A stretch of 64,000 nt of DNA from Siphonodentalium dalli (Eukaryota > Mollusca > Scaphopoda > Gadilida > Siphonodentaliidae). The position numbers were made by a program, and so were the translations under genes. Location of the stretch: assembly GCA_032622095.1 (NCBI GenBank), contig CP136069.1:155919043-155983042 (forward strand), given 5' to 3'. A model generated the notes under the pieces. It searched no databases. It had not been told where the DNA came from and saw nothing but the letters and a program-made list of their open reading frames with translations. Shown piece by piece: positions 22,336-50,443 of this stretch; position 1 is the stretch's first letter; every line of letters starts with the position of its first letter.

Positions 22336-22770
22336 ATATGGACCCGCCATATCAAATCCAGTCGTAAGTCGGGATTTTTTTTTACCCTGTGCCAATTCAT
22401 TCTCTTATATATGCGAGTCGACCATAGGTCGCCTCGCATATATAAGAGAATGCATTGGCCTAACAATTTTTTATCATTTTTTTTAAATAAATGTTTCTTA
22501 CAATTTTTAGGACATAAAATAAAAAACATCCATTACCATGCAGGGAGCCCCACACATATATAGAAGCATATAGAAGAGTGTCGTCTGCTCATGTTTGTCT
22601 GGGGCTCTGTATGGGTGAAATTATAAAATTGTTAAAGAATACAAGAAAAAATTATTAAAATTGTAAAAAATTGTTAGGCCTATGGTCGACTCGCATATAT
22701 AAGAGAATGCATTGGCACAGGGTAAAAAAATCCCGACTTACGACTGGATTTGATATGGCGGGTCACATAT
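22336..22770. mobile_element. ATATGTGACC-type MITE carrying two hairpin modules
   Basis: GACCCGCCATATCAAATCCA at the left and TGGATTTGATATGGCGGGTC at the right are inverted ends. The left stem is CCAATTCATTCTCTTATATA...TATATAAGAGAATGCATTGG. The right stem is reduced to its distal half (CCTATGGTCGACTCGCATAT...GCATTGGCACAGGG). Its end lies ~90 bp before exon A. Confidence 0.85.
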
Positions 22771-22862
22771 GGACACCCCTCCCTCAATGGATAACCTCTA
22801 GCTCCTACTTGTCAACAGCGTGCACTGGACCTGTATTGTATTTGTTGTTATTGATATTTCAG

Positions 22863-23048
22863 ATCTGCCGCCGGTGATAACTGTGGACAATAAAGCTGTC
22901 ACGTGGCCTGAGAATTCAATCATATCGACAACTACGACCCAGTATACTGCCAAGTGTACGGAACCACAAGGCAATTCCGTCACTTACTCTATTTACAGCA
23001 ACAACGGAAATGACCCGGCAAATGTAATCAATCTGGACGCAGCCACTG
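22863..23048 (+). CDS. Cadherin-like gene, internal exon A (first half of a cadherin repeat)
   Basis: This is an internal exon of a cadherin-superfamily adhesion receptor, extracellular part. It is preceded by a pyrimidine-rich tract and AG at 22861-22862 and followed by the donor GTGTGTAA. It is 186 bp and phase 1 at both ends. The reading begins (D/N)LPPVI, the usual start of a repeat after the DxND linker. It then has WPEN (PEN-type Ca-binding Glu), a TEPQGNSVTYSI stretch equivalent to the DxDxGxN...Y(S) strand, and ends at LDAATG. That is where cadherin repeats are commonly interrupted by an intron before the LDYE motif. The first codon is split, so at least one exon lies upstream, but none was recognised in 1-22800. 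The end of a MITE (22336-22770) lies about 90 bp upstream of the acceptor. Assignment to the superfamily is confident; the subfamily (Fat-like, CDH23-like or lineage-specific) is not resolved. Confidence 0.85.
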
Positions 23049-23284
23049 GTGTGTAATTCATTGCTTACAACGAAAATGACACGTCCAGGGTACACAATAG
23101 CTATATTCAACCACAAACACCCATGTATGGGTAACTTTTATACATAAACGTGTGTTGTCACGGAAGTCAGCTGACTCACGTGACCATTTCACTACACAAA
23201 CATGGTCAAATCGTTCATTACGCCCCCTGTGTATAATAATCTAGATATTCTAGATAGCTATGGTTCGCTGAGCGTTTTATTTAT

Positions 23285-23565
23285 AGATAATGGGAATTTT
23301 TGGGAGGATTAAAAGTCGAACTGCGAACCGGAGGCCGAGTCCGGTGAAAGGTGTAGTTGGAAATTTCAATTCAATAATGTTGATTTTTTGTTTGTGACAA
23401 GTTATGTCAATTGCAAATAAAAGAAATGAAAAAGATAATTTATAAGTCTTTACTTATATTTCCACTTTATTAAACATTTTTCGTTCTGCAGCCCGCTGGG
23501 GGGTTGTGGTCGGAGACGGCCGAGTCGGCCGCCGGTTCGTTAATTAGGTGCTGGTTGTTATTGTT
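23285..23565 (+). repeat. Interspersed repeat, + orientation (also 36425-36560 and 38740-39010)
   Basis: It shares GTAGTTGGAAATTTCAAT, AAGAAATGAAAAAGATAA and GGAGACGGCCGAGTCGGCCG with an inverted copy at 38740-39010 and a short copy at 36425-36560. Confidence 0.6.
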
Positions 23566-24284
23566 ATTTTAACGGAATTCTGAGTTGGTCATTCGCGAAA
23601 CCAATATATTTTATATTCTGTAATTACAATCATGGGTATATAATATATGATCTTGAGCGCGTTACCATTCTCACATTGGTTTTCTTGTTAGTTATGTGTC
23701 CAATGAACGTGTGCATATGGAACTTGTAACCAAAAGGAGAAATGCAATCTTCTGTTGAGTCGAATGAGCGACAAAGGCTACGCAGACGGCGGGAGAACGG
23801 GATTTGGCTTTTCTAGAGTAATTGTACCAGATTAATTTACCAGGGTAATTTACCTCGATATTAGGGTAAATTTACCACCGTAGTGCCGAGATACGCTTTC
23901 AGAAGGTTTAATATTTGAGATAACATAAGGCGTTAAACACTTTTTGACTTAGTTGACTTATTTTATACAATATTCTTGTCCCATTATGTTAACTTTTGAG
24001 TACGACACCGGTACTATTGTTTTCCACTGACTGACTAACATTTTTTTTTCTCACAAAAATAGACAGAAAACACTTCAGTTACGTATGAGCTACTGTGGAA
24101 TAGAGTTATCGCTCATGAATTGTAAAATAACTCTGGTAAGATCCAGATAAACCACGGTTTACCAGGCTCTATATATTCTGGTAAAATGTGGTAAAAATCA
24201 GGTAAACAATGATAACAATACTCTGGTAAAAGTCCTGTAAAAAGTACGTACCCCTGTAGATTCCTAGCAAAGGCTGATATTATC
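23566..24284. other. No gene; scattered TTACCA/TGGTAA motifs
   Basis: AATTTACC and CTGGTAAA recur loosely between 23820 and 24240. There is no defined repeat unit. Confidence 0.35.
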
Positions 24285-24427
24285 CATCATGACCTGGGGT
24301 GTGGGATGGAAAAATCTCACCCTCGGGGCCAGATATTTGGGCCGGACACGAGGCTTGCCGAGTGTCCGGACCAAATATCTGGCACCGATGGTGAGATTTG
24401 TCCATGCCCACATCCCAGGTCATGATG
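24285..24427. repeat. Short near-perfect palindrome (143 bp)
   Basis: CATCATGACCTGGG...CCCAGGTCATGATG, AATCTCACC/GGTGAGATT, CCAGATATTTGG and CCGGACAC/GTGTCCGG pair around a ~12-nt loop. Confidence 0.75.
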
Positions 24428-24565
24428 AATTATTTTTCTCCTAACCCAAGAGCCTCATTCCGATTTTTTTTAATACCAATATTTGGCACATTCCAGTAGC
24501 TTCGTAACGGTACATCTGAGGAGAAATCTGATAAGATATTCGTGATTATCTGTGATGGTTATGGT

Positions 24566-25022
24566 ATATGTGACCCGCCATATCAAATCCAGTCGTAAGT
24601 CGGGATTTTTTTTACCCTGTGCCAATGCATTCTCTTATATATGCGAGTCGACCATAGGTCGCCTCGCATATATAAGAGAATGCATTGGCCTAACAATGTT
24701 TTACAATTTTTTCTTGTATTCTTTAACAATTTTATAATTTTACCCATACAGAGCCCCAGACAAACATGAGCAGACGACACTCTTCTATATGCTTCTATAT
24801 ATGTGTGGGGCTCCCTGCAGGGTAATGGATGTTTTTTATTTTATGTCCTAAAAATGTAAGAAACATTTATTTAAAAAAAATGATAAAAAATTGTTAGGCC
24901 AATGCATTGTCTTATATATGCGAGGCGACCTATGGTCGACTCGCATATATAAAAGAATGCATTGGCACAGGGTAAAACAATCCCGACTTATACGACTAGA
25001 TTTGATATGGCGGGTCACATAT
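24566..25022. mobile_element. ATATGTGACC-type MITE, complete copy with two hairpin modules
   Basis: ATATGTGACCCGCCATATCA and TGATATGGCGGGTCACATAT are inverted ends, with AAGTCGGGATTTTTTTTACC inside. Stem 1 is at ~24622-24687 and stem 2 at ~24898-24963; CTAACAAT and ATTGTTAG mirror each other between them. The central ~200 bp includes GAGCCCCAGACAAACATGAG and CTCTTCTATATGCTTCTATA. Confidence 0.9.
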
Positions 25023-25803
25023 ACCATATACTGTAAAAACAACAAAGCGCGTTACCCGTGCGCGCAGGGTTAATATATACATTAGAGGTTGGAGGCTTTT
25101 CCTCACATGAATTAGCGTCCACGAATTCGTCCGTATTTATTTACTTGAAACGCCATTGTTTTAGTTGACAAAATACATGATGACGGATTGTTAAATTAGT
25201 TCCAGCTCTTAATTAAATAGGTAAAGCAGTCACGTGGGTAGGGTGACATACCTGGTCACGTGTTGGGTGAGACAGAGAAATCTCACACAGCTATCCCACA
25301 ACTGTGCTAAAATGAGTAGGGGGTGGGAGAAATGGTTTACCCCACTTAGTTATACTCTTGTAAATCCTGGTGTATTACCATTACATACATGGGCACCATA
25401 TCCATGCATGGCAATACCATAGGAACAAACGTTACAAGTTAGCCGTATATACGTTTGGCTAATCCTGACTAATAGGCACGTTGCGAACTACAAGTTATCG
25501 TTCAAACAGCTATCACCAAGCAGTAAACGTCACTAATTTCGTGGTTCGACGCCAGTCAATGACTTCTAGTTCACGTTCCGTATATATATAGTTGGCGCGC
25601 AGATAAGGGTAACTGAGCTACATGAAGATTGTAATTTATGGCAAGATATATGCGTATCAATGCAAGTGGCTGGCATCTGGTCACATTCGGTCAACATTTG
25701 AATGGTCTTCGTTGAACAATTTGTTTGATGAGGAAGGCATACTTTTTATGTATGGAGACGAACACACCTGTTATGTCTTTCGCGGCATACAGAACATGTT
25801 ATG
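25023..25803. other. No recognisable feature
   Basis: Non-coding sequence between two MITEs. I see no exon with cadherin motifs. Confidence 0.4.
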
Positions 25804-26213
25804 ATATGTGACCCGTCATATCAAATCCAGTCGTAAGTCGGGATTTTTTTACCCTGTGCCAATACATTCTCTTTTATATGCGAGTCGACCATTTTTAAAT
25901 AAATGTTTCTTACAATTTTTAGGACATAAAATAAAAAACATCCATTACCCTGCAGGGAGCCCCACACATATATAGAAGCATATAGAAGAGTGTCGTCTGC
26001 TCATGTTTGTCTGGGGCTCTGTATGGGTAAAATTATAAAATTGTTAAAGAATACAAGAAAAAATTATAAAAATTGTAAAAAATTGTTAGGCCAATGTATT
26101 TTCTTATATATGCGAGGGGACCTATGGTCGACTCGAATATATAAGAGAATGCATTGGCACAGGGTAAAAAAAATCCCGACTTACGACTGGATTTGATATG
26201 GCGGGTCACATAT
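25804..26213. mobile_element. ATATGTGACC-type MITE with one truncated stem
   Basis: It has the same ends as 24566-25022. The left stem is cut after its first half (GCGAGTCGACCATTTTTAAA), while the right stem (26091-26156) is complete. The central region is in the opposite orientation to 24566-25022. Confidence 0.85.
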
Positions 26214-26776
26214 GTTCGCGATGCAAGACAAAATCAAAAACATTTCGATCTTCCACACATTGTCAATCGCCTTAGCATTGATTCGCATAATAAAACGTGT
26301 CAAAACATTATTAAGTCAGGTTAAATGCTAAAGCTTGTTTTACTCAAATAATACACAATATTTATAGGACCTATACCACGTCCATACTTCCCCATATATA
26401 CTTATATCAAATGAAACCCCTATATTATCATTGAAAAATCCATTAGATATTTTATTATCTCTCACTAGTAAGTAATAGCCGCGTGCTTCCCGGGATACTT
26501 GGCATCGCGCCAAGTAAATAACCGCGCGGATCAATACTATTTAGAAAAGTCGCGCTTGACACCAATACCTGACATTGCAAAATGATTATTTTATTCATTA
26601 CAGTTCAACTTGTTTTATTCATTAAAATTCAAATGTTGTACAGTTTCGTTGCACTAATGAAAATAGGAACAAAAACAAAGATGAAAATTGTGGGACTATA
26701 TGTTTTGTCGCAAGACAGAGCGCCCAATACTGTCGTATACGGTTGTGAAGCGTCTCATCCAACGCAGTGCACTGCG
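26214..26776. other. No recognisable feature
   Basis: AT-rich. A small hairpin CTTGGCATCGCGCCAAG lies near 26499. Confidence 0.35.
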
Positions 26777-26885
26777 TGGGATATAAGATTTTATGAAACT
26801 CGCTTCATAAATTTGATTCACAACTCATCTACGACTCGTTGTGAATCCAATTTATCAACCTCGTTTCATGAAATATTATATCCCA
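26777..26885. repeat. Short palindrome (109 bp)
   Basis: TGGGATATAA...TTATATCCCA, TTTTATGAAAC/GTTTCATGAAA and GATTCACAAC...GTTGTGAATC pair in order. Confidence 0.7.
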
Positions 26886-27004
26886 ACATAACTCCCTGAA
26901 GATCCTCTATATAGTATAAACTGACAATTGGATCATAAACGTTACTCGTTTGCAAGTTATCGTATAGAGTGAATACGGACGGCAAGAAAAATCCTCTCCA
27001 GATA

Positions 27005-27275
27005 TCAAAACAGCGTGACGTACATGACGAGGAATGTGTGTTTACCGTGACGTACATGACGAGGAATGTGTGTTGACCGTGACGTACATGATGAGGGATG
27101 TGTGTTTACCGTGACGTACATGACGAGGAATGTGTGTTACCGTGACGTAATTCACGAGGAATGTGTGTTGACCGTGACGTACATGATGAGGGATGTGTGT
27201 TTACCGTGACGTACATGACGAGGAATGTGTGTTGACCGTGACGTACATGATGAGGTATGTGTGTTTACCGTGCTT
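27005..27275. repeat. ~32-bp minisatellite, about 8 units, with TGACGTA in most units
   Basis: The unit is CGTGACGTACATGACGAGGA plus ATGTGTGTTTACC, with GATGAGG and TTGACC variants. Most units contain TGACGTAC, a CRE-like octamer. The last unit decays at 27275. Confidence 0.85.
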
Positions 27276-27334
27276 GGCGTTAGTCGTCGGAACGGGATCT
27301 TGTAGTTCGCAACCTGCCATATATCACCTATTAC

Positions 27335-27880
27335 CAGGTCTGGCAATTCCCAAATATAGCTACAATAGCCATATTTGACTATTGTATCTATATTTGACTA
27401 TCGTAAAACAATATGTTTCCAATTTGTATTGCATGCAGACATGCATTGTCGCGAGATGTTGCAACTAAGGGTGAGGGGTATTGTGTTGTTACAACTTATG
27501 AAATCACTACCGATGACATTTACATTTCCGTTGCACCAGCTTGCGGAATATCAGAGAAGCATAGCTAAGCACATGCATCTGTTCAGATATTGGTTATGCT
27601 ATCTGATATGGGATTCATCCATATAGTATCTATTCTTCTTCTATTTAGGTACATTTATCTGGAAAAAGTAACAATATTGGAATATTTTGTTAATTATACA
27701 TTAACATGGCAAACAATATTAATTTACTAAGAGTATAATCAAATCATGTTCTTGTATATTTAAATTATTGTTGGATTGGGTTATCTCTCTTCAACCAGAT
27801 TCATCCGCCACCAATAGCCATATGTAGCTACAATAGCTACATATGGCTATTGTAGCTATATTTGGGAATTGCCAGACCTG
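27335..27880. mobile_element. CAGGTCTGGCAATTCCC TIR element (546 bp)
   Basis: The left end CAGGTCTGGCAATTCCCAAA and the inverted right end match for at least 30 bp, followed by TATAGCTACAATAGCCATAT. ATTAC flanks both sides (27330-27334 and 27881-27885), a 5-bp target duplication. The interior encodes nothing recognised. Confidence 0.75.
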
Positions 27881-28290
27881 ATTACGCACATGATTATATA
27901 GCTAACGTTCGGGATTCACGGTTAGACAGCGATTGATATTGAAACGCAGTAACACGTGCATGGCGCGCGAGGTTAGTATTACATTTCGAAATGAGTGTGA
28001 TAACTTTATAACATACTTTGACGAAATAAGGAGATTTGTATGACGAATTTACAAATTCACTATAGTGTACAACGTTGGTCTGACATATAAGTCAAATTAC
28101 TTTATTGTGTGGGTTGGCTTGGGGGAGGTTATATATAGAGGAACGCTTAGGAAAGCATTTCTTCACAGTTTAAAAGTTATTCTTCAAATATCTCCGTCGC
28201 TATCTAATCGTGAACCCCGATAAAGTATATTTCTATATCTAATCATGTGCGGATTGGCTACCAATAGATAATCGATAACTGTTATTTTAG

Positions 28291-28493
28291 GTAATGTGGA
28301 ACTGCTGAAAGGTGCTACCCTGGATTACGAATCTGTTAAGGCCTTCAATCTCTGGATCGATTGCACCGCGACAGCCACTGGGCTTCATAGTTCCTCCCAC
28401 ACGGCATTCACCTTGGTAATATCTGACGTCAACGAAGCCCCAGTTAACACGGGAGGTGTTTCCGCAAAAGTGACTTTGGCGGAGGGCACCGAA
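28291..28493 (+). CDS. Cadherin-like gene, exon B (end of one repeat, start of the next)
   Basis: The acceptor TTATTTTAG ends at 28290 and the donor is GAA/GTAAGT. The exon enters in phase 1 and joins exon A to give ...LDAATGGNVELL. It leaves in phase 0 after AEGTE. The peptide carries LDYE (the LDxE Ca-binding motif), a strand containing FTLVISDVNEAP, which is the inter-repeat linker DxNExP, and the start of the next repeat ending VTLAEGTE. Two Cys-free strands flank a short WIDCTATATG segment with one Cys. The phase match with A and C and the correct order of cadherin motifs support the splice choice. The downstream intron is ~10.7 kb and holds a tandem duplication, a TIR-bounded minisatellite and a LINE. 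Confidence 0.85.
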
Positions 28494-28595
28494 GTAAGTT
28501 TCTTGAATTGTTCAAACTTGTATTTGGTTGAATAATATTTACTTCCATACAAAATATTAGAAATAAAACAAAAATGATACATATATAGAATACTA

Positions 28596-28965
28596 GCAGG
28601 TTAGCCCGCCACTGGCGTGCTTGGTCAGAAACATGTTAATGATGAGCCCGACGTTGTCCGGGCTATTCAAAAACCAAATTTCAAGTCGATAGCTCCACCC
28701 GTTTCCGAGATCTGGTCTGCGCATGCGCGAAGCTGGCATCGCACGGACTCGGCGACCCGATAAAATTCGTATCCGGGGCAAGATACATTCACATACCAAA
28801 TTTCAAGTCGATAGCTCCACCCGTTTCCTAGATCTGGTCTGCGCATGCGCGAAGCTGGCGTCGCACGGACTCGGCGACCCGATAAAATTCGTATCCGGGG
28901 CAAGATACATTCACATACCAAATTTTAAGTCGATAGCTCCACCCGTTTCCGAGATCTCGTTTGCC
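28596..28965. repeat. 122-bp tandem duplication (about three units)
   Basis: ACCAAATTTCAAGTCGATAG and CTCCACCCGTTTCC recur with a period of exactly 122 bp (28676, 28798, 28920). GCGCATGCGCGAAGCTGGC and GATAAAATTCGTATCCGGGG lie between. It resembles non-LTR 3' UTR sequence in style; the family is not identified. It starts ~100 bp after exon B. Confidence 0.8.
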
Positions 28966-29517
28966 GGGATTTCTGAGAAGCATTATGCCTATATCCACAC
29001 TAACTACCCCCTTAAGCCCTGACCTAATACTATAACAATGATGCTGAACACTCTATTGCAGAAATGTTGTAAGAGTACTATGGCATCCAATAAATCTCCC
29101 CGCATAGGAAACCACTCAAAATCCCGTATATCTCTCTGCAGATACTAATAACGTTGAATGGTAAACAAACGCTCTTTACAGCGATGCGTCAAAAACAAAC
29201 GCTCATTAAATATCAACGCTATTAACCCCGAAGTGCCGATTGCGGTGATTTTGATGATTGGGAAGGGAGAAACGGTGCTCTGAGTTTCTCCAAAACGCGA
29301 CTACGGCGGTGTCCGTGGGATTTTACACAACAGGTGTTCATTAAATGTAAAATTTAAACAGATGGCTTTATTTATATAGTAAGCTAGGCGTAGGCGATCG
29401 TGGTATAAATCACAATATTGCTATGTATGTTGTCATAGCTGGTCAGTTTATTGTGTTTCGTTTGATTTATACATAGTTATGGAAATCAAACTATAACATA
29501 GCGTTCTCTCTCGCTGA

Positions 29518-32500
29518 GGCCGGTTTCAAACGACGATTTTTTGTCGACTCGAATCTAATTCCAGACCCACAATTGTATTATATGCGTCAAAGATGTGACG
29601 TATATATGAAACAATTAGATCCGTTTCAGACGCACCACAGACGAATCTCCGTCCAATTCAGATGAATCTTCGTTGGTGATGCGTCTGCAACCTGTCTTTT
29701 TTATATATGACGGATTTTTGACGACTCGAATCTAAAACATGTTACCGGAAAAGCCGAAAGCTGCCGAAGTACCGAATGCAAATGATATGATAATATATAT
29801 TATGTATATCCTATATATAAGCATTGCTTAGGTAACATTGTGCAAATTGGAATTATTAGAAATTATTTGGGTAGTTTGATATCTCAACCAACAGGGCATG
29901 TCACTGACTCAAATTTTATAATGGATATGGTACCACTGATTTATAATAATTCATATATACCGGTATTACATACATACGGGATAGGTGGTAGCCACGGGTT
30001 TATAATAATTCATATAAACCGGTAGTCATTATTGCAAGGCATAGGTCTCTGATTTATAATAATTCATATATATCGGTATTCCTCATTGTAAGGGGTAGGG
30101 GTGGTAGTCTTTGATATACAAATAATTCATTTATACATGTATAAGGGATATGTGATGGTAGTCTCTGATATAAAACTAATTCATTTATACCGGTATGATG
30201 GGTAGGTGATGGTAGTCTCTGATATAAAAATAATTCATTTATACCGGTATAAGCTGGTATAAGGGGTAGGGGTGCATGGTAGCAACTGACTTTTAATAAT
30301 TCTCATACTAGCATACTGGTATTCCTTATTGTAAGGGATAGGTGTTTGTATAGTCTCTGATTTATTATAATTCATATATACCGGTATTCTTTATTGTAAG
30401 GGATAGGTGATGGTAGTCTCTGATTTATTATAATTAATATATACCGGTATTCCTTATTGTAAGGGATAGGTGATGGCAGTGTCTGATTTATTATAATTCA
30501 TATATACCGTATCCCTTATTGTAAGGGATAGGTGATGGTAGTCTCTGATTTATATAATTCATATATACCGGTATTCCTTATTGTAAGGGATAGGTGATGG
30601 TAGTCTCTGATTTATATAATTCATATATACCGGTATCCCTTATTGTAAGGGATAGGTGATGGTCGTGTCTGATATATTATAATTCATATATACCGGTATT
30701 CCTTATTGTAAGGGATAGGTGATGGCAGTGTCTGATATATTATAATTCATATATACCGGTATCCCTTATTGTAAGGGATAGGTGATGGTCGTGTCTGATA
30801 TATTATAATTCATATATACCGGTATCCCTTATTGTAAGGGATAGGTGATGGTCGTGTCTGATATATTATAATTCATATATACCGGTATTCCTTATTGTAA
30901 GGGATATGTGATGGTCGTGTCTGATATATTATAATTCATATATACCGGTATCCCTTATTGTAAGGGATAGGTGATGGTCGTGTCTGATATATTATAATTC
31001 ATATATACCGGTATCCCTTATTGTAAGGGATAGGTGATGGTCGTGTCTGATATATTATAATTCATATATACCGGTATTCCTTATTGTAAAGGATATGTGA
31101 TGGCAGTGCCTGATATATTATAATTCATATATGCCAGTATTCCTTATTGTAAGGGATAGGTGATGGTAATATCTTATTTATTTTAATTCATATATACCGG
31201 TATTCCTTATTGTAAGGGATATGTGATGGCAGTGCCTGATATATTATAATTAATATATACCGGTATTCCTTATTGTAAGGGATAGGTGATGGTAGTCTCT
31301 GATTTATATAATTCATATATACCGGTATTCCTTATTGTAATGGATAGGTGATTGTCGTGTCTGATATATTATAATTCATATATACCGGTATTCCTTATTG
31401 TAATGGATAGGTGATGGTCGTGTCTGATATATTATAATTCATATATACCAGTATTCCTTATTGTAAGGGATAGGTGATGGTAATATCTGATTTATTTTAA
31501 TTCATATATACCGGTATCCCTTATTGTAAGGAATATGTGATGGCAGTGCCTGATATATTATAATTCATATATACCAGTATTCCTTATTGTAAGGGATAGG
31601 TGATGGTAGTCTCTGATTTATATAATTCATATATACCAGTATTCCTTATTGTAAGGGATATGTGATGGCAGTGCCTGATATATTATAATTCATATATACC
31701 GGTATTCCTTATTGTAAGGGATAGGTGATGGTAGTCTCTGATTTATTATAATTCATATATACCGGTATTCCTTATTGTAAGGGATAGGTGATGGCAGTGT
31801 CTGATTTATATAATTCATATATACCGGTATTCCTTATTGTAAGGGATATGTGATGGCAGTGCCTGATATATTATAATTCATATATACCAGTATTCCTTAT
31901 TGTAAGGGATAGGTGATGGTAGTCTCTGATTTATATAATTCATATATACCAGTATTCCTTATTGTAAGGGATATGTGATGGCAGTGCCTGATATATTATA
32001 ATTCATATATACCAGTATTCCTTATTGTAAGGGATAGGTGATGGTAGTCTCTGATTTATATAATTCATATATACCAGTATTCCTTATTGTAAGGGATATG
32101 TGATGGCAGTGCCTGATATATTATAATTCATATATACCGGTATACCTTATTGTAAGGGATATGTGATGGTAGTCTCTGATTTATATAATTCATATATACC
32201 GGTATTCCTTATTGTAAGGGATATGTGATGGCAGTGTCTGATATATTATAATTCACACATATATATATATATACCGGTATTCCTTATTGTCAGGGATAGG
32301 TGATGGCAGTGTCTGATATATTATAATTCATATATACCGGTATACCTTATTGTAAGGGATATGTGATGGTAGTCTCTGATTTATATAATTCATATATACC
32401 GGTATTCCTTATTGTAAGGGATATGTGATGGCAGTGTCTGATATATTATAATTCACACATATATATATATATACCGGTATTCCTTATTGTAAGGGATAGG

Positions 32501-34425: not shown

Positions 34426-34504
34426 GAGTCAAATCAATCGCATATTTGAATCTTAGTCTCCATTCAGTATTCTGGTCGTTGATTGGTTAAATCGGCATCA
34501 TGCG

Positions 34505-34690: not shown

Positions 34691-34744
34691 GCTGTGATGT
34701 GAAAAAATAAGAGTACGGTGGCTGGTTTAGGACATGTGATTTTT

Positions 34745-35010
34745 TTCGTGGCCAAGAAATAACTAATTCGTGACCACAAAATAACTAATTCGTGACCACG
34801 AATTACTAATTCTTGGCCACGAAATACTAAATCGTCGCCACGAAATAACTAATTCGTGGACACGAAATACTAAATCGTGGCCACGAATTAGCATTTCGTG
34901 GCCACGATTTAGTATTTCGTGTCCACGAATTAGTTATTTCGTGGCGACGAAATAACTAATTCGTGGCCACGAAATAACTAATTCGTGGCCACGATTTAAC
35001 TAATCGTGAT
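34745..35010. repeat. TTCGTGGCCACGAA tract with a 56-bp-arm perfect palindrome
   Basis: About 14 units of ATTCGTGGCCACGAAATAAC-type sequence. At 34832-34887 and 34895-34950 the arms pair perfectly around the 7-nt spacer TTAGCAT. The core GTGGCCAC is itself a palindrome. Confidence 0.9.
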
Positions 35011-39010: not shown

Positions 39011-39211
39011 AGAGAACACCATTACATGGCGTAATTATTATATCTCATCGGTATCCGGGTCGTTTGTGTATAACACCTCCACATAACGGCGTCGGTGTCA
39101 TCAGCATCCCTCGTGTCCTTCCAACCCATGCATTCCTTGAGACCAGTTGGTAAATTATTATACGTATTAGTTATCAAGGCTTAAAAAACTATATTCACGT
39201 TATTTTTGCAG

Positions 39212-39404: not shown

Positions 39405-40376
39405 GTAAGTTAAGTAGAACGACCTTCACCCTCAGAACAAATGTGTATACATTCTACATATTAGGTGTTACATTTTATCTTAAACATAATTGTGTTGAAA
39501 TGACACATGACATAGATGTGTCGGTGGAATTTTATCAACAATGAATATGAGTGAATATGTGAGTATATTATAGTTAGTAAATGAGATGTGTTTTGAGAGA
39601 CAAACCTCGTCAAAGCTACCATATTGAGCATCTGGCACTAGCTTTAAAACGTTGTGCTACAAATTATGTGCTGTTAAATTTTGACACAAACACGGTGTAT
39701 AACAAATTTTTAAGCTGCTGCCAATGTTTTTTTTGTAAGCTTTACGTGTTTTGTGTCTCCAATAGAACACATCTCATCTAATAACTATGATATACTCAAA
39801 TATTCAACATTGAGGAAATTCCACCGACAAATAATTATGGCATGTGTCATTTCTACACATTTTTGTTTATGCAGCAAGCCCCAGGGAAACTAAGAAGAAT
39901 TAGGATAAAGCTTGTCGTAATGGTCAACTTTAATCTCTCACAAATAATAAAAATAAACAACATGATATGTACATAAAAACATGTTCAGGATGTGGGTACA
40001 ACTGCAACACTCGTCGAATCGACAACAAATTTCGATTATATAAATACGAGCCGAACCGAGCGATAAACGAATGGCACACGATAAAAATTCTGGTCTCCAT
40101 GACTCAACATGTGTTAACAACAATGTGAATTTATAATTACGTACGTGAAAAATAACTAACAACGGGAAAAATACAAGACAAATTATTTTGGACTCTCGAA
40201 TGGCGGATGAAACTAAATTATGGTTTACATCCGCTCCCGGAACTAAAGTCAAGGTCACTTAATAAGGCTGCCCTGGAACCTGCCGCACAAAAGCAACCAA
40301 ACTTGACATTTAATTGCGACTTTAAGATAACATGTAACACATTATGTCGAACTTATACACATTAGTTCTAAGAGTG
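39405..40376. other. Intron sequence without recognised repeats
   Basis: AT-rich; the open frames here are not protein-like. Confidence 0.4.
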
Positions 40377-43300
40377 TTAGAGACCTCCCTGACCCCTGGA
40401 CAGATTTCAACCAAAGATGATGTGGTGACTCGGGGTACCCTGGCGGACATTAAACGGCGCTAGATTTTCTAAATTTTGATTTGAATAAAATATAATTCAA
40501 TGCTTTTTAATCGGTATTGTTAAATTGAGCAAAGAGTTCAATCTAAAATAATTTTAAAAATAAAGTGTTAAATTTAGTTCTTTTTTCTTTTAAATACTAA
40601 AATGTTTAAACGATCAAAATGCGTACAAAGCGCACACATGGGCCGCTGCTGAATAAAGTCTCTGTCTAAGATCAAAATGTGCGCAAAGCGCGCAGGCCCC
40701 TCCGACGCTGAATAAAGGCTCCTGAAGGGAGCCTGTTCCAGCTAGTCTATATATTAGTCTGGTCGTTGAAGCATTGGACCTAGACCAATTGCTTACAAGC
40801 TTTTTTTGGTGTCATATTGTCGGGCAGAATGTAGGGAACAACATATCCAAAATCCGCTAAAATCCGCTTTGGGGAAAATTCTCTATTGAAGATGGCATCC
40901 ATAATGCCCGTTGTTATCGGAAAATACTGAATTCTGCGGCAGGTGCTCCAATTAATGCCAAATTCGTAATAAATTGAAATATACACAAACATTGCTTAGT
41001 CGTAAACCATATATGTAGAATATTTTTCCCAAAATGGCCACAAAATGGACAAAATCGAATGAAATTAACATTTAGTGCAAAATTGAATATCTAGTCCTAT
41101 ACGAGTGAACAAACGCTCGAATATTGCGAGGAAGAATGACTACATGTATAAGAGAAACTTTTGATTAGAGATGTGCGAATTCTCTCTGATGTATCTCACG
41201 AGAGAGCAAGCGAAATCAGGGTCTTGTGGAACGGCTAAATCTGGACTCTTGGGTGTCCAGAAACGGAAAAATGACGCAGTTTTATCTGTACCGCTAATCT
41301 TGAATCGTGTGATATATGTGTAATTAAACAGCTAAACGGGATCTAGTAGGGATGTATTGACTATGCGGCCTTTCTCTAGAAGCAGAAATATATGTATTCA
41401 GAGCAGTCTCACGAATGAGACCGATCACCATTTATTTTTATATCTACGGTATAAAACCTTAAAAAAATAATTGCTATAAAACGGTATGAATTACGTTCAT
41501 ATTGTACTGGGGAGAATGCGTATATCCTATTGTACGTTTCTCAAAATAGTAGTTATAGTTGCCTCAGATCAAGTGATAAAACACGAATATTTCGCTTTTA
41601 TCACAAGAATGCGTGATGGTGTACCATGAACTAAATTTATTAATTCACAAATGAGTACCATAGACTGTCTTCAATAAATTCAAAACTTGACCAAAATTGC
41701 CTACATAATCTGTGACAGAGACTGTGTTTATACCTGGAAATTATATTTGGTTGAATTCACCAAGGCCACATATACGCGAAACTTACTACGTTGTCTTCAA
41801 CCGCATCACCGCGTTTACCCATTTTCCATAATGCTACACATGTCTGTTGCACACAGAATCACAACTAACAATATTGGGTGAATGTTCAACGTTGGAATAA
41901 CATCTTAAACGATGATCACCTGATATTTAGCACGATTAGTGGGTGGTAATGGTAATATATTTTCAAACAAAAATATACTGAAAACTAATAGTGTGCATTG
42001 CGCTGTAGCTTATTCTAGTTGTAAAGTGGCCACTGAAGTAATTTTAACAAAATTGTCTACTAAGAAACCGGGTTGGTAGCAGAATGAAAATTAGTCTTAC
42101 AAACAATGTACTATGTACAGTCTCTTTGACCTGGTGAGATTCTGTGCTAATCCATTGAAGATATGAGTGTTTCTTTACAGTATAATAACCATTGCGACAT
42201 ACGTGTATCGTTTATTATCACCGGGAGTGTTGACAATTCCGGAAATATAACTAGTATTTATACCTCTAGAGTATGCACTTAAATTTCGGCGTTGCATTCA
42301 ATATTTAATCACCATGCCGAATGAAACTACCATGCACTGTGAGGCGAAACATTAGTTCGTGTGTTGCATGCACGAGCTATTTTTGTTTTGCCCGACAGTT
42401 GGATGTTGGATAAGCAGAACACCCAAACGTTAAAGACGTAAATCATTGGGGGTTGACATGCTGTGCAGTGACCGATGATCCTTCAGATTGATCTGTTTTA
42501 ATGATGTGTGTACCTTTAAAGATATTTAACAACCGACTTGTATATTGCCAATACGTATTTCACTCTTATGTAGTTGCCCAATATGTTGCTTTCTACGTGG
42601 TATGGTTTGGAGTTGCGGCCATTTTGACAGCCATTTCATGGCCACGATTGTATAATTTTCTGTCCGTGTCACTCTACTCGCTCCCGCATTCTGATTTAAC
42701 ACAAACTGATATAACGGCATAATACTGATGCCACTATATATCGTATAATGACTTATATCGAGAACTGATGTAGTATAGACAACCATGTTGGACGCCATCG
42801 TGGATAACAAAGTTTCCCCAACGCGCTTTTTGCGGATTTTGGATATGTTGTTCCTGATGCTTTTCCGCGTCGAATGACACAGAAAACAGCTTGTAAACAA
42901 TTTGTTCTAGGTTCACCTCAAAATCGAGTCTCAACGATCAGACTATATACAAAAGAGTAGAATCTGACTGTCTGTTGGCCATTTTTTCTACCAGACCCCT
43001 GGACCTATTTCAACCAAATTTGGTGTGGTGAATCGGGGTGCCCCGGCGGATGTTGTAACGACATTAGTTCTTTTAATAGATGTTATTAATATTTTATTTT
43101 ATTAATAACTAGCTGAAACAGGCTCCCGAAGGGAACCTTTATTCGGCGTCGGAGGGACCTGTCACCCCTGTTTGTGATTCTTGCACGTTTTGATCTTAGA
43201 CGGATACTTTATTCAGCGGCGGCCCCTTTGTGCGTTTTGATAGTTTAGACATACAATTTGATTATCAAATTATATTAATGGTTTTGACTATCAAATTTTG

Positions 43301-43515
43301 ATAGTCAAAACCATTAATATAATTTTGTTTAGATAGAACTCCTTGCTCAATTTAACAAAACAGATGTTTTTGTTTTAAAAATAAATTAATTTGTTTTAAA
43401 TAAAAATAAAAATAAAAAAACGCCGTTATAACATCCGACAGGGTACCACGAGTCACCACACCAAATTTGGTTGAAATCGATCCAGCGGTCTGGGTGAACA
43501 AATCGCGAACACTAA
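40377..43515. mobile_element. ~3.1-kb foldback element with ~400-bp outer and ~150-bp or longer inner arms
   Basis: The outer left arm (40380-40760) contains GACAGATTTCAACCAAA, GGTGTGGTGACTCGGGGTAC-like sequence and TCCGACGCTGAATAAAGGCT. The outer right arm (43115-43512) is its inverse (AGGGAACCTTTATTCGGCGT, GGTACCACGAGTCACCACAC). Inside, CAACATATCCAAAATCCGC (40850) pairs with GCGGATTTTGGATATGTTG (42832), and GATGGCATCC with GGACGCCATC. An extra forward piece of the outer arm lies at 42980-43070. No transposase recognised. Confidence 0.75.
43268..43324. repeat. Perfect 28-bp-arm hairpin inside the foldback
   Basis: AATTATATTAATGGTTTTGA continuing to CTATCAAA is mirrored exactly after a single T. 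The equivalent left arm lacks it. Confidence 0.85.
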
Positions 43516-44192
43516 GGATAGTCTTTATTCATTCACCATTGTACAAACATAAGTGTTATATACATGTAATGGTATTAGAATATATGGATTTATAAGTATA
43601 ACGGTCAGTAAGCAACAATAATTTTGAAATAGAAAAGAAAGTGATGCGGTGTGCAATGAGTAAGTTATCCAGGAGAGCAGTTTGCAGTTTCATTAATAAG
43701 TCTGATAAACTTACATAACTTTCTCATAATATGTCTCTTACTATTAGCTAACAGAATTTTGAATTTCTTTTCATTGTGATTTCTGACATATGATTTTGGT
43801 AAATAAAAACTCGCATTCAAAAATAGCATGGTATTCATTCCCAATGACTTTCTTCGTACAAAAAGTGCATTTCCGATTAACACACGATGTGTTGTTCCAA
43901 CGACCAATTTCCACTGGCAGGAAATGATTCGCGGTTCTAAACCTTGCTAATATATAAATATCTTTGTGGTTCAATGAACCCAGATAATTTTCCATTATAA
44001 ATTTACCTTTTATAAGTTTATAAGCACGACCCTTTGACGATGATTCCATCGAGGCGTACCATTCTTGTTTAAATTGGTCGCTCACCTTTTGCATTAACGT
44101 GGATTCTACATGTTTATCATCTAAACCGTTCATTTAGTATAACCATATATATGATAAACCAGAATTGTCTAAAATTGCGCGGAGCGATTTAA

Positions 44193-45262
44193 AGGGGTAC
44201 TGTACGCCATTTTCTATAAATTCCCGGTATCAATTGCGATCTAATATCAATATTATATTTTTAAATAACGTATTTGAGTCGACTCGACGATGTCTACTGA
44301 AAACGTTCCGGTTAACAGGCTATCATAAAAGTCAAATTGAATTATTTAAAGGTACTCAATCCGATAAAACTCCTCTCAATTACTATGTCAATGGCTTCGG
44401 GGGTCAAAAATATTTGATTCGAGTCGAGGAAGTCACCCATCAAAGCTCAGATTTGTTAGATATCGATTTTAGAAATCTATTATTTTTCATTATCGGGAAT
44501 ACTTTCTGGCCCAGAACTCAGTCAAAATTGCGTTATTATTACCACTTGATTTTAGAGTTATCCATCCTTGTCTGTTTGAATATTGTTTTGGTGTACACAT
44601 CTCGCGCAGGTTACGAAACTGACGGCAATTATTAGTACTCATCTCGAGAACTAACAAATTTCAAAAATCAATATCTAATAACTCTGAGCTTTGTTTGATG
44701 GGTTCCTCGACTCGAATCAAATATGTTTTACCCCCAAAGCCAAAGAAATAGTAATATAGGACTCTCTGATCGGATTGTTGTTGTTGGAATCTGTTGAGAC
44801 GGGGACCCTCTGTTCGGATTGAGTACCTTTAATATAAATGAATTTATGGCTGGAGTCATAAAATGGCGAATTATGCCATTACGAGTTACCGTTCTTGAAA
44901 TCTCACATGTTGGGTGTCTTTTATCGACGGCCGTTTACGACGAACATTATTGAGTTGCGAACAAAACATGTTACATGCAAAAGGAAGTCCCGATATTTTT
45001 ATAGGGGGTGAGATTGTTCGATGGAAGAGATTGCAGGCATCAATTGAACTTCCGGTTCATCCTGCAACCTGCGTCTTCTCCGGTGAAGGTCAAAAACATG
45101 GGGCGTAGTTTGAAATCGTAATATTTTTATTTCCAAGATCAATATTTTCGTCGCTAAATTAGGTTTATACGAAACTCATATAACACGAACACAATCTAAC
45201 TTGAAAGTTATGTCAATGGGAGTAAATAAAAAAAATTGCCTATCTCTGTGTACAGTACCCCT
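44193..45262. mobile_element. TTAA-target TIR element inserted in the LINE
   Basis: AGGGGTACTGTAC and GTACAGTACCCCT are perfect 13-bp termini flanked by TTAA (44189-44192 and 45263-45266). The interior (1.07 kb) is non-coding and holds the MITE at 44350-44828. Confidence 0.9.
44350..44828. mobile_element. AGGTACTCAATCCGA MITE nested in the element above
   Basis: TTAA at 44346-44349 and 44829-44832 flanks AGGTACTCAATCCGA and TCGGATTGAGTACCT. Long sub-terminal arms pair (GGGGGTCAAAAATATTTGAT with ATCAAATATGTTTTACCCCC; TCGAGTCGAGG with CCTCGACTCGA). Confidence 0.9.
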
Positions 45263-46933
45263 TTAAGCCATGGAAATTCATATAGTTTTTCATTTGGAAG
45301 AGAATACATTAAATCGTATAATTGACTGCTCAATCGGTTACATTTACCTGTTACTAATTTCATCCAGAATTTCACTATTCGAAATTTGATTTTCACATGT
45401 AATGGTTGTCTTCCAAATTCCCCATACACCATATAACTGGGCGTTGAGGATTTCGGATGTAAAATTAGTTTGCAGAATTTAAGATGTACGCGTTCAATCA
45501 TAGAGTTATCACCCGTACCCCATACCTCACAGCCGTATAAAAGAATCGGTACAACTAATGAATCGAATAATTTTAGGTGTGTCTAAATTGAAAGCTTGTA
45601 TGTTCGCCCAATTTTAATAACCTCATACATCGCTTTGTTAGCGTTGATCGATACTTGCTTTTTCATTTCGGCGAAAGATCCTGTTCGATTTAATATTACT
45701 CCCAAATAATTAAATGTGTTTACGATTTCAAGTTCTTTGTTGTTATATTTGAACGATACATGCTTCAATTTCCGTTTTGAGAAACAAATAATTTTTGATT
45801 TTGGTATATTAACCCTAAGCATCCAGGTTGTACAGTAATCTTCAAAATAATTAATTTGTAATTGCAAATCTGCTTCAGATTCTGAGAATAGCACCGTGTC
45901 ATCAGCATATAGTAGCACGAAAAGTTTCAAGTATCGATCGAGTCTATCTTCACACTCTTGAGATATTGATTCTACACCTTTGATGTCAGTACTCCCTAGA
46001 AAATCTTGCAGGTCGTTAAGGTATAAACAAAATAAAAATGGTGATACATTGTCTCCTTGCTTTAGGCCTGTATATGAACGGAAATACTCTGACGATTGTC
46101 AGTTGTGGACAACTTTTGACTTGATACCGGTGTATATGTCAAGAATAATTTTATGCATTTTACCAGTAATGTTATTCAAAATAAGTTTGTGCCACATTGC
46201 CTCTCTACATACAGTATCGAATGCCTTTTCGAAGTCTATAAAAGCGCAATATAATTTTGTTTTAATTGTGTTAATTCTATTAGAGACTGTAGTATGAATA
46301 CGTTGTCAACTGTAGAGTGGTTTTGTCAAAATCCACTTTGGTTTTCGTGAATTATGTTACATTTATAGGAGTATTGATTTAATCTCGTATTTGAAATTGA
46401 CGTGAATAATTTGCCCATACAGCTGAGGATAGTTAATCCCCTGTAATTGTTTGGGTCACCGGTAGACCCTTTATTTTTGTATATTGGTACAATCAAACCT
46501 GTTTTCCACGAATCAGGGATAATGCCGCTGTCAAAGACAGCATTAAATAGTGAAACATATAGTGGCATTAGTTTACTCGCCGATGCTTTCAAATATTCAT
46601 TTATGATTCCGTCATCTGATGAGGATTTACGTGCCTTTAATTTGTGAATGCTACGGAATATTTCAGTTTCAGATATTTGAGAATTTAACTGGTTTAATTC
46701 GTTGACACCATCCGGTTGTTCATTCTCAGTTGCTGTATTGATGGGTGGACAGTTTTGGGATTGAACAATTCATAGTTTTAAAATATTCAGTTAATGTGTA
46801 TAATGATATACATGTATCGTACCTTTTTCTCGATTAGTTACCTCTAATGTCTTGCCAAAACTTTCGGGGATCAGTTTTAATGCGTAAGTCCATTTCGCTC
46901 CGGATTTTGATTTCATAATGATTGCTCGCTTTA

Positions 46934-47220
46934 TTAACCCTTTACCCAACAAAACGGCCAAAAACGCCCCAATAAAGCTTCAACAGTCTAAAATATCCTC
47001 GGTCTGTCTCAATAACACCATACAAATATGGATATCATTGGAACTGGTTCATTGATGGTTACAGTTATGCCCTGTGCCAATGCATTCTCTTATATATGCG
47101 AGTCGACCATAGGTCGCCTCGCATATATAAGATAATGCATTGGCCTAAAAACAATTCTACATTCTTTGACAATTTTATCATTTTTAATATGTGTTAAGCC
47201 AATGCATTCTCTTATATATG
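46934..47220 (-). mobile_element. Truncated piggyBac-like MITE carrying the hairpin module
   Basis: TTAA/CCCTTTACCCAACAAAACGG begins the reverse orientation of 49993-50443. It runs through TGTGCCAATGCATTCTC (stem 1 complete) and breaks off in the second stem at CTTATATATG, where LINE sequence resumes. Confidence 0.8.
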
Positions 47221-47955
47221 GAATGTTTTGTATTTTATCAAACATTTCGCTTACTTCGTTTATGCACATTTCGTCTAAATTGTTTATAAAATTTGTGGTC
47301 AAGTTTTTATCCCATTTATTCGCTGGTGTTTTGGTCCACCACAAGCATCACTACATTCGATCATTCGTTCTGTATCCATATTAGATTTGAAGTTAAGAGA
47401 CAGAGAAAGTTCCTTGTGGGCATCTGAAAATAAGAGTGAAAATTCTAGAATATTAAAATCAGTTATAAATTTTAGGCAATTCAATGATGAAATGGTATAG
47501 TCTACGACTGAAGCATCTTTACATGTCAATTGGCCGATATTTTTATTGGCACCGGTACGTCCATTTAAGATCAAAAGCTCATTATTTCGACACACATCTA
47601 ACAATCTTCTACCAAATGTGTTAACAATATTATCTTCACTTTTTTATAGTTTAAAAAATCTTGTTCAATTAGCCTGTTTCAGCAAGTAGAACATGCATAA
47701 GAGTCTGGTGGAGTCCCGGTGTTGTGGAATGGGAATATTAGGGGCAAGTAGTAACAAAGATATATATTCGGATCCCTCCCTTATTTGTTCAATGTTATAA
47801 ATAGGTCACAACATCATTATGTTTCCAGGTTTTGAGAAAGTGGAATATGATATCAACGGGCGGGGCCAGAGTAGAGATTCATGGTATGACCTATATGTAC
47901 ATGTACATCAGGACCATCATAAGCGCTTCCTATATAATTATGTTTGTTATTTCAG

Positions 47956-48146
47956 CTGAATCCGGCGGATCCTTTACGACAATTGCGACACTGGAAATCT
48001 GCATTTCAGACCTCAACGATAACTCCCCTATATTTTCCACCAGCACCTACACCAGCACGGTAGATCTTGGGTTCGCTGCTGTCACCGGCACCACCTTAGC
48101 AACAGCCGCCGCCACAGATGCGGACGGGTCATCGCCCAACAACCAG
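47956..48146 (+). CDS. Cadherin-like gene, exon D (linker plus start of the membrane-proximal repeat)
   Basis: The acceptor TTGTTATTTCAG ends at 47955 and the donor CAG/GTGAGA follows 48146. It enters in phase 1 (G/CT = Ala) and leaves in phase 0. The translation runs AESGGSFTTIATLEICISDL then NDNSPIF, a canonical DxNDNxPxF linker and the clearest cadherin signature in the window. It continues into STSTY and ATDADGSSPNNQ, the DxDxG..N loop of the last repeat, which is completed by exon E (ITYAM). There is one Cys before the linker. The exon is 191 bp. The downstream 3.9-kb intron contains two piggyBac-like MITEs carrying the hairpin module, a 21-bp and a 22-bp tandem repeat, and a LINE 3' end. 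Confidence 0.9.
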
Positions 48147-48390
48147 GTGAGACAATACTCTCCGTAACCGTCGATAGAGGCAAACTGTAGTTTAGAGTTC
48201 TGTCTCCTCGTTACGCTGGTCAGACCACTGCCTTTACGTACATGCAGAATGTAAGCTTATCTCACATTTGTTTATTACATGCAGTTGTTTGTACCACATT
48301 ATTCTGAAAATCTAAGCTGTCCATATTCAATTGGAGTTGTCCAGATAAGATCAAATTAGTCTCCCCCTTCGGGCGTAAGCTTCTGGTACA

Positions 48391-48790
48391 TTAACCCTTT
48401 ACCCAACAGAAGGGCCCTGTGCCAATGCATTCTCTTATATATGCGAGTCGACCATAGGTCGCCTCGCATATATAAGAGAATGCATTGGCTTAACACATTA
48501 CAAATTATAAAATTGTTAAAGAATGTAAGAAAAAATGGTAAAAAGTGTTAAAAAAAGATTTTTTTAGGCCAATGCATTCTCTTATATATGCGAGGCGACC
48601 TATGGTCGACTCGCATATATAAGAGAATGCATTGGCACAGGGCATAACTGTAACTATCACAATGTGGTCAAGGAGCCGGTTCCAATGATATCCATATTTG
48701 TATGGTTCTATTGAGACAGACCGAAGATATTTTAGGCTGTTGAAGCTTTATTTGGCCGGTTTTGGCCGTTTTGTTGGGTAAATGGTTATT
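48391..48790 (+). mobile_element. piggyBac-like MITE with two hairpin modules
   Basis: TTAA then CCCTTTACCCAACAGAAGGG at the left; the right end TTTTGTTGGGTAAATGGTTA has lost a perfect TTAA. Stems at ~48423-48488 and ~48567-48637. The 3' half (CATAACTGTAACTATCACAA on) is shared with 50302-50443. Confidence 0.85.
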
Positions 48791-48930
48791 GTCTATTATA
48801 TAGTTAGAGCTACCTGTCTAACAGGGTATGGTATGTATATAATACATAAGTATAGACATAAAGATCAGGCCTGTCGAGTTGAGTCCCAGTGAGGTTCGCA
48901 AGCATGGTAAAATACTCCACCAGGTATGTA

Positions 48931-49015
48931 TATATGAGCTTGGACGGATGGGTTCCTCGACTCTAATCAGATATGTTTTACCCCCGAAGCCAAATAAATA
49001 ATAATTTAGGAGTGT
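48931..49015. mobile_element. Fragment of the AGGTACTCAATCCGA MITE (right end)
   Basis: GATGGGTTCCTCGACTCTAA, TATGTTTTACCCCCGAAGCC and AATAATAATTTAGG match the right halves at 19880-19960 and 44695-44760. Confidence 0.65.
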
Positions 49016-49332
49016 TAATCCGGTTTATGTATCTGTAATGCCAGTCACGAAAATGAAACCGACTCATGTAATAGAAGAAAACGAAACACGATATATTTAT
49101 GGGCGACCATTTGGTCTAAACATTTGCCAAATGACAATCAATAGGTGTTCAGTAACAATGAATAAGTCAATTCAAAAATAATAGAAGTCGCTTAAAAATA
49201 AATATATGTTAAATAAAAATTAATAGATATAAAATAACACCAATATAATTATGATAACCCGTCGTTGACGAACAACCGAGAAACGGAGTCGAGCGCTTCT
49301 TCACCTTGTCCCGTATATGTAACCAATGTATG

Positions 49333-49425
49333 AAACCGCATGGTTCGGCGCGAGGACCGCATGGTTCGGCGCGAGGACCGCATGGTTCGGTGCGAGGGCC
49401 GCATGGTTCGACGCGAGGACCAAAT
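49333..49425. repeat. 21-bp tandem repeat, about four units
   Basis: CCGCATGGTTCGGCGCGAGGA repeated with point changes. GC-rich in an AT-rich intron; the multiple-of-3 period keeps several frames open, which is not evidence of coding. Confidence 0.85.
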
Positions 49426-49474
49426 GGACCAACATACAAACAACTGGTTAAGCATTTGTGTCAAGTGTTTGGAT

Positions 49475-49620
49475 AGGATAGGATAGGATAATTTTATTTA
49501 CAATACACATATGAATAGTACAATGGAATTAACATATAACTAGATAATAATGAAGTATATTGCTGGGGGGAACATAGCCCTGCCGGGCTGTCTCCCTGTC
49601 TTGGAATCTGAACACTAATA
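49475..49620 (-). repeat. Probable LINE 3' end with GGATA repeat tail
   Basis: GGATAGGATAGGATA followed by ATTTTATTTACAATACACAT and GGGCTGTCTCCCTGTCTTGG resembles, in reverse, the 3' UTR and short-repeat tail of a CR1/L2-type element. No coding part is present. Confidence 0.45.
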
Positions 49621-49992
49621 GAATCAAATGATTCACATTCGGGACCAAATTAGAAGATCAAAACGAAGTACCCAACACACATTTTTTGGTTCTTTACGAA
49701 TAACCAAAATAAAGAACCAAATCCACATGGAACCAAATTCTTTTTTAAATTTTGTCCGGATGAGAGAACCAATCTATAAGCTGTTATGGTTCTCTATCTG
49801 GGTCTGCTTGTAAATGAGACCAAATAGTACCTTTTGGGTTCCCCATTTGGTTCAGTCTCAATGCAAGGAAACTTATGAGTGATTGTGAAACATTATGCTG
49901 GGATACTTTATTACAATAGTTATTGTAAGCACGTTTCAGGTATCGTGGTTTCAGAATGTTCTATTAGTTCGTAAATACGTTAAACTGTTTAA

Positions 49993-50443
49993 CCCTTTAC
50001 CCAACAGAACGGACCTGTGCCAATGCATTCTCTTATATATGCGAGTCGACCATAGGTCGCCTCGCATATATTAGAGAATGCATTGGCTTAACACATATTA
50101 AAAATGATAAAATTGTCAAAGAATGTAAATAAATATTATAAAAATTGTTAAAAAATGTAAGAAAAGATTATAAAATTGTTAAAGAATGTAAGAAAAAATG
50201 GTAAAAAGTGTTAATTTTTTTTTAGGCCAATGCATTCTCTTATATATGCGATGCGACCTATGGTCGACTCGCATATATAAGAGAATGCATTGGCACAGGG
50301 CATAACTGTAACCATCACAATGTGGTCAATGAACCGGTTCCAATGATATCCATATTTGTATGGTGTTATTGAGACAGACCAAAGATATTTTAGGCCGTTG
50401 AAGCTTTATTTGGGCGTTTTTGGCCGTTTTGTTGGGTAAAGGG
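49993..50443 (+). mobile_element. piggyBac-like MITE with two hairpin modules, intact ends
   Basis: TTAA at 49989-49992 and 50444-50447 flanks CCCTTTACCCAACAGAACGG and GTTGGGTAAAGGG. CCC-type ends with TTAA targets are the piggyBac signature. Stems at ~50018-50083 and ~50225-50292. No transposase, so mobilised in trans if at all. Confidence 0.9.

What the first reader, a model, noticed from the sequence alone, without database searches (positions are those of the whole stretch)
22336..50443. One hairpin module shared by at least three different inverted-repeat element types
The module CCAATGCATTCTCTTATATA...AAGAGAATGCATTGG is a ~65-bp near-perfect hairpin with a 3-nt loop and a GTCGACC/GGTCGC neck. 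It occurs, usually as a pair flanked by CCCTGTG and CACAGGG, in three settings. First, MITEs with ATATGTGACC ends (22336, 24566, 25804). Second, piggyBac-like MITEs with TTAA targets and CCCTTTACCC ends (46934, 48391, 49993). Third, older elements with GACTGGAG/CTCCAGC-type flanks (9592, 10480, 55115). The outer sequences do not look related, so the module has been captured or swapped between transposon backbones. It may itself be mobile or may provide a function such as a small-RNA hairpin, a transposase-binding site or a replication-stalling signal.
Basis: partly seen in the sequence, partly recalled or inferred. Interest (0 to 1): 0.75.

Follow-up and report, generated by a model that had tools for sequence, protein, structure and literature searches.

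The report
Hairpin cassette shared by unrelated mini-transposons
A very abundant 67-letter hairpin sits at the heart of several kinds of tiny jumping DNA whose ends look unrelated, and apparent hybrid copies in this genome suggest that ends have been swapped around a lasting core, somewhat as reported in corals.

Summary
A 67-nt near-perfect hairpin (one conserved T·C mismatch, 3-nt loop), usually paired in inverted orientation between CCCTGTG and CACAGGG, lies inside MITEs with different ends. The genome (2.23 Gb, species not identified) holds 335,210 exact copies of its outer 15-mer. I find four end types: A (GTGACC ends, AT-rich non-TTAA target), B (TTAACCCTTTACCC), C (TTAACCCTTTCATGAC, older) and D (TTAACCCTTTGAGTGCC, one hairpin). 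The hairpin consensus is identical, 67 of 67, in A, B and D. Outer flanks of B, C and D agree only in a 10-nt piggyBac-like tip; A's match none. All 32 hairpin clusters in 264 kb have A-D ends within 190 bp: no stand-alone module was seen, so the module is not shown to move by itself. Pattern searches find apparent hybrids: 11 loci with an A flank before a B middle, 66 with a B flank before an A- or D-type middle. Best reading: a persistent MITE core whose ends are exchanged by recombination at the shared hairpins. Coral CMITEs are a close precedent. The hairpin's function is untested.

The parts
22336..22770 (.). A-type MITE: outer 22336-22382, hairpin 22392-22458, middle, half hairpin 22684-22715, outer 22723-22770
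24566..25022 (.). A-type MITE: outer 24566-24614, hairpins 24622-24688 and 24899-24965, outer 24973-25022
25804..26213 (.). A-type MITE: outer 25804-25851, half hairpin 25859-25892, hairpin 26091-26157, outer 26165-26213
46934..47220 (.). B-type MITE, right part missing: long left flank 46934-47069, hairpin 47077-47143, arm remnant 47199-47220
48391..48789 (.). B-type MITE: short left flank from TTAA at 48391, hairpins 48422-48488 and 48569-48635, right flank to about 48789 (last TTAA mutated)
49989..50447 (.). B-type MITE: TTAA at 49989, hairpins 50020-50086 and 50227-50293, right flank 50301-50443, TTAA to 50447
9607..9821 (.). C-type (older) element: diverged hairpins 9607-9669 and 9706-9772, middle 9677-9705, right end 9786-9821
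10476..10768 (.). C-type element: left flank 10476-10514, hairpins 10518-10583 and 10704-10768
55113..55341 (.). C-type element: left flank 55113-55150, hairpin remnants 55164-55200 and 55230-55298, right flank 55299-55341
18..58 (+). Right end of a D-type element; its hairpin lies just left of the window (L103)

Best explanation
The feature is a shared inner cassette (CCCTGTG - hairpin - AT-rich middle - inverted hairpin - CACAGGG) of several non-autonomous DNA-transposon (MITE) families. It does not move alone. The lineage of the core persists while its ends, which decide which transposase can move it, are replaced by recombination or template switching where two elements pair through their nearly identical hairpins. 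Shown: identical core in A, B and D with flanks that do not align; an older relative in C; loci that fit hybrids by pattern. Inferred: that the families were founded this way, that C is near the ancestral state, and that the core is kept because it helps transposition or repair in cis.
For: Hairpin consensus identical in A (15 copies), B (39) and D (3). Middles of A and B, and of A and D, score above all 500 dinucleotide shuffles. After the 10-nt tip is removed, none of the 13 between-family flank comparisons stands out: 66 to 500 of 500 shuffles score as well (consensus strings typed by eye). B, C and D end in TTAACCCTTT; A ends in GTGACC beside AT-rich, non-TTAA flanks. Apparent hybrids: 11 loci A flank + hairpin + B middle, of which 6 of the 9 in the printed range also end in a B right flank; 66 loci B flank + hairpin + A- or D-type middle, 20 of which end in CACAGGGTA, or 14 places if one tandem array counts once. 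L066 shows a full A flank and hairpin and, by position, a B middle and B right flank. D is half a core between two D ends.
Against: Hybrids are rare (tens against 10^4-10^5 tips, though exact patterns undercount) and could be by-products of ordinary ectopic recombination, not steps in founding families. No ancestor of A, B or D without the core was found, so the direction of exchange is inferred. B, C and D share a tip, so for these three common descent with replaced subterminal DNA is not excluded. No benefit of the core was tested.
Confidence: 0.6

Rival explanations
1. One ancestral element: the core is its conserved middle and the flanks have simply diverged.
For: B, C and D share the tip TTAACCCTTT. 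Nearly every outer flank read carries the core or a remnant.
Against: A shares neither tip nor TTAA. Among A, B and D the hairpin consensus is identical at 67 of 67 while flanks do not align; drift alone would not do both.
Confidence: 0.15
2. The core is itself a mobile element that inserted into different MITEs next to CCCTGTG.
For: Sharp symmetric borders; in A the adjoining bases read ...TTTA / TAAA..., as an inserted element with a TA duplication would.
Against: 0 of 32 clusters stand alone; no flank that looks like an empty site among 20 A, 10 D and 10 C tips; no such duplication at the border in B; D has only half a core.
Confidence: 0.1
3. The hairpin is a cis-acting transposition site: a subterminal palindrome bound by a piggyBac-type transposase.
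For: B, C, D have piggyBac-like tips and the genome has open piggyBac transposase frames. piggyBac and piggyBat transposases bind subterminal palindromes with their cysteine-rich domains (PMC11707139, passages seen).
Against: A, without TTAA or a CCYT tip, carries the same hairpin; none of 10 piggyBac loci fetched showed it; a piggyBac family with a TTAACCCTTT tip and no core exists (29 exact tips). It could still be the reason why the core is kept under the best explanation.
Confidence: 0.25
4. Transcribed copies give Dicer-processed small RNAs, as human MADE1 MITEs gave mir-548.
For: Very stable fold. Between C and the others two neck pairs changed on both sides while the T·C mismatch stayed; among 11 C-type copies 6 of 8 double changes are compensated, 3.5 doubles expected by chance. 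MADE1 precedent PMC1784062 (passages seen).
Against: Within A/B/D copies 58 single-sided, 3 double and 0 compensated changes in 1,798 pair cells, so copies decay freely; no Rfam family above its gathering score in window 46900-50500; 3-nt loop.
Confidence: 0.1

Closest known systems
Coral CMITEs (Acropora; Wang et al. 2010, PMC2872659; abstract, passages and sections 10 and 14 seen)
   Same: MITE families with different TIRs but a shared, highly conserved internal region; TTAA target sites, mostly CCCTTT-type tips; tandem arrays; origin of the internal region unexplained; one copy noted whose internal region is like that of another family.
   Different: CMITE internal region is 75 nt and the total is estimated there at about 1,600 copies in A. 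millepora; here the core is a paired hairpin with 335,210 exact 15-mer copies, it also occurs with non-TTAA ends, and hybrids are counted by pattern. The CMITE sequence is in a figure that is not held and was not compared.
piggyBac-type MITEs (TTAA, CCYT tips)
   Same: B, C and D: TTAA at the ends and CCCTTT tips.
   Different: A is not of this type; no autonomous B, C or D element was found among the 10 piggyBac loci fetched.
MADE1/mir-548 (PMC1784062, passages seen)
   Same: MITE that is a near-perfect palindrome and would fold as a hairpin.
   Different: There the whole element is the hairpin; here an element carries up to two, and no small-RNA data are at hand.

Membership tests
MITE (non-autonomous DNA transposon) | short, inverted terminal repeats, many copies at different places, no long ORF | tested here: met
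   410-457 bp (A, window), B tips mostly 350-440 bp apart; 25,987 A tips (<=1 mismatch), 91,612 exact B tips; none of the 8 ORFs of 120 aa or more overlaps the A or B elements of the window
piggyBac-type MITE: B, C, D | TTAA at the ends and CCYT tip | tested here: met
piggyBac-type MITE: A | TTAA at the ends and CCYT tip | tested here: not met
   GTGACC tips beside ATAT, AAAT, ATTT and similar
piggyBac-type MITE: B, C, D | autonomous partner with the same ends | tested here: inconclusive
   10 loci chosen from 128 listed PF13843 matches; none with B, C or D tips as its own ends
A as a transposon with a fixed target duplication | equal flanking bases at both ends | tested here: inconclusive
   four equal bases at 6 of 8 distinct loci, unequal at 2; but five of the six are ATAT, which reads the same on both strands, so only one locus (ATTT/ATTT) is informative in favour
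CMITE | same internal sequence as coral CMITE | not testable with these tools
   sequence only in a figure of PMC2872659
microRNA precursor (Rfam) | score above gathering threshold | tested here: not met
   best 37.7 bits against 60, window 46900-50500
independently mobile element | stand-alone copies with their own duplication | tested here: not met
   0 of 32 clusters

The most novel reading that the evidence does not exclude
A non-coding transposon core can outlive its transposases: when one source of transposase fails, the core acquires new ends by recombination at its hairpins, even across superfamilies (from a TTAA type to an AT-rich non-TTAA type), so that the hairpin core, not the TIR, is the unit of inheritance.
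Probability: 0.35. Interest if true: 0.75.

Novelty: new variant of a known kind. Interest (0 to 1): 0.5.

Why it matters
MITEs are classified by their ends. If a core can change ends, end-based families cut one lineage into several, and the puzzle of how MITEs keep amplifying after their transposase dies gets a concrete, testable answer. With tens of thousands of copies and visible candidate hybrids, this genome is a good place to test it.

Tried and rejected
Other outer families: I searched CCCTGTG plus the 15-mer preceded by C or T (1,438 copies) and read 15 of these loci: all were A, B or C variants, two A-type ones (L048, L051) with a foreign left flank. Viral spread: 0 exact matches of a 26-mer in IMG/VR. 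Core-less outers: I read 20 A tips without a partner at the usual spacing (about 16 distinct loci, since L060/L061, L065/L067 and L071-L073 are duplicates): 19 run into the hairpin arm, one of these rearranged (L062), and one (L063) breaks off inside the arm. Of 10 D tips 9 have the hairpin; L084 has lost it but keeps the half middle. Of 10 C tips 7 have a hairpin or its remnant and 3 are tandem arrays of C ends with no hairpin in the 117 bp read. Hairpin self-correction in single A/B/D copies: not seen. (120 matches of a shorter pattern) was NOT counted as hybrids, because a deletion within B's own left end can create TTTACCCTGTG. 'CACAGGGTA' and the middle fit D as well as A. In some searches only hairpins of exactly 67 nt were used (69 of 82; 13 dropped). 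Paper searches for sequence strings and for TIR exchange between MITEs gave CMITEs as the only close case seen; the library lacks most subscription papers.

Full report
What is there. The hairpin consensus is 67 nt: CCAATGCATTCTCTTATATATGCGAGTCGACC ATA GGTCGCCTCGCATATATAAGAGAATGCATTGG. Its outer 15-mer has 335,210 exact copies, while the reversed control has none. Folded as RNA with short flanks it reaches -55.1 kcal/mol, z -13.

Anatomy. In A and B elements two hairpins stand in inverted orientation around an AT-rich middle, bounded by CCCTGTG and CACAGGG. In C the hairpins are more diverged: 12.6% mean divergence from the family consensus in 12 copies, against 2.6% in 7 A copies and 1.0% in 18 B copies from the sample taken without regard to the module. 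D carries a single hairpin and half a middle between two different D ends that share a 20-nt tip.

Families. A tips: 12,950 + 13,037 (up to 1 mismatch). B tips: 45,784 + 45,828 exact. C tips: 1,491 + 1,575 exact, an undercount for an old family. D left tips: 2,712 + 2,590 (up to 2 mismatches). In 264 kb (20 stretches of 10 kb chosen by coordinate, plus the window) there are 32 hairpin clusters: 16 C, 9 B, 5 A, 1 D and 1 of B beside C; none lacks such an end within 190 bp.

Are the flanks one element? With the ten-nucleotide tip TTAACCCTTT, the B, C and D flanks match each other over exactly that tip. A's target: of 10 pairs of ends read, 8 distinct loci (two are inverted duplicates of others), 6 have four equal bases on both sides and 2 do not. 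Five of the six are ATAT, which reads the same on both strands, so the duplication is likely but not proven. Either way A has neither TTAA nor a CCYT tip.

The core is shared. The hairpin consensus is the same at all 67 positions in A, B and D. The middles of A and B align over 53 nt, and those of A and D over 46 columns, with scores above all 500 shuffles; B and D more weakly (20 of 500 as good); C with A or D only over 13 nt (8 and 5 of 500), C with B hardly (44 of 500). Between C and the others two neck pairs differ on both sides (G·C to T·A, A·T to C·G), while the T·C mismatch is kept in 10 of 11 C-type and 56 of 58 A/B/D-type hairpins. Within the 58 A/B/D-type copies there are 58 single-sided changes, 3 double ones and no compensated one, as expected of dead copies; in the 11 C-type copies there are 53 single-sided and 8 double changes, 6 of them compensated (3.5 doubles expected). 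So the structure seems to have been kept in source elements, not in each copy. These counts use the 69 of 82 hairpins that are exactly 67 nt long, and part of the A/B/D copies were fetched by exact motif, which lowers their divergence.

Apparent hybrids. An A flank directly before a hairpin and a B middle occurs at 11 places. Of the 9 that fall in the printed part, 6 also end in a B right flank. A B flank before a hairpin and an A- or D-type middle occurs at 66 places, 7 of them in one tandem array; 20 of the 66 also end in CACAGGGTA, 14 places if the array at C3:220.54-220.58 Mb counts once. Reversed controls gave 0 in each search. L066 is one hybrid of which I hold the left 121 bp: full A flank and hairpin, while its other end falls in the list. 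Outside its tip it reads ACCCAACAGTTATGT, which looks like B end sequence, so an A element may have landed in a B element before recombination at the hairpins; this is inference.

Partners. One search lists 128 matches to the piggyBac transposase family (116 of 649 first-look candidates were scored), many with open frames. In 10 loci that I fetched from these, the hairpin was not found; L032 has TTAACCCTTTATCTGCTATA at both ends, L034 at the right end, and L037 a TTAACCCTTTAGCCC right end; the stretch of L034 also runs into a neighbouring D end. The first of these tips has only 29 exact copies in the genome, so a piggyBac family without the core exists at low copy number. That would fit an amplifying role of the core but does not show it: other inverted-repeat elements of the window have no such core.

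Reading. I take the core as the lasting unit and the ends as exchangeable. The closest report I saw is that of the coral CMITEs, which already describes different TIRs around a conserved internal region, piggyBac tips and tandem arrays, with the origin left open. New here are the paired hairpin, the scale, a non-TTAA member and the pattern-counted hybrids. Hence 'new variant of a known kind'.

Noticed in passing
L039 and L040 (C1:4495950-4497740, C1:4549530-4551340): Elements with A-type ends and a single hairpin arm on each side enclose a Bcl-2-like ORF (L040: 177 aa, PF00452, E 1.7e-13); GCC-rich repeats flank it, the inverted repeat goes on outside the A ends, and by eye the L039 copy looks interrupted.
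   Followed up: partly
C1 about 742-786 kb and 826-926 kb; C1 94.237-94.292 Mb; C3 220.538-220.580 Mb: Evenly spaced copies of the module that look like long tandem arrays (steps about 14.5, 11.2, 7.9 and 6.0-7.7 kb), the last with hybrid-type copies. Seen from positions only.
   Followed up: no
L089, L090, L095; L017 2379-2490: Tandem arrays of the C right end (about 37-bp units) and of a 22-bp piece of the hairpin arm.
   Followed up: no
C1 1.79-1.83 Mb and 3.55-3.59 Mb; C1 12.475 and 12.528 Mb: The same A insertions appear with inverted flanks at two places, pointing to inverted duplications.
   Followed up: no
window 58021-58279; perhaps also L011, L053, L055: An inverted repeat of 126-bp arms without the hairpin core; stretches with CCCAGAGGGTGA in L011, L053 and L055 look like the same element by eye, not aligned.
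   Followed up: no
window 34741-34977: Inverted repeats including perfect 56-bp arms 7 nt apart.
   Followed up: no
window 62360-63557: Long repetitive ORFs on both strands, probably a minisatellite.
   Followed up: no
L032, L034 and places: A low-copy piggyBac family with TTAACCCTTTATCTGCTATA ends and open transposase frames, so possibly recent activity.
   Followed up: partly
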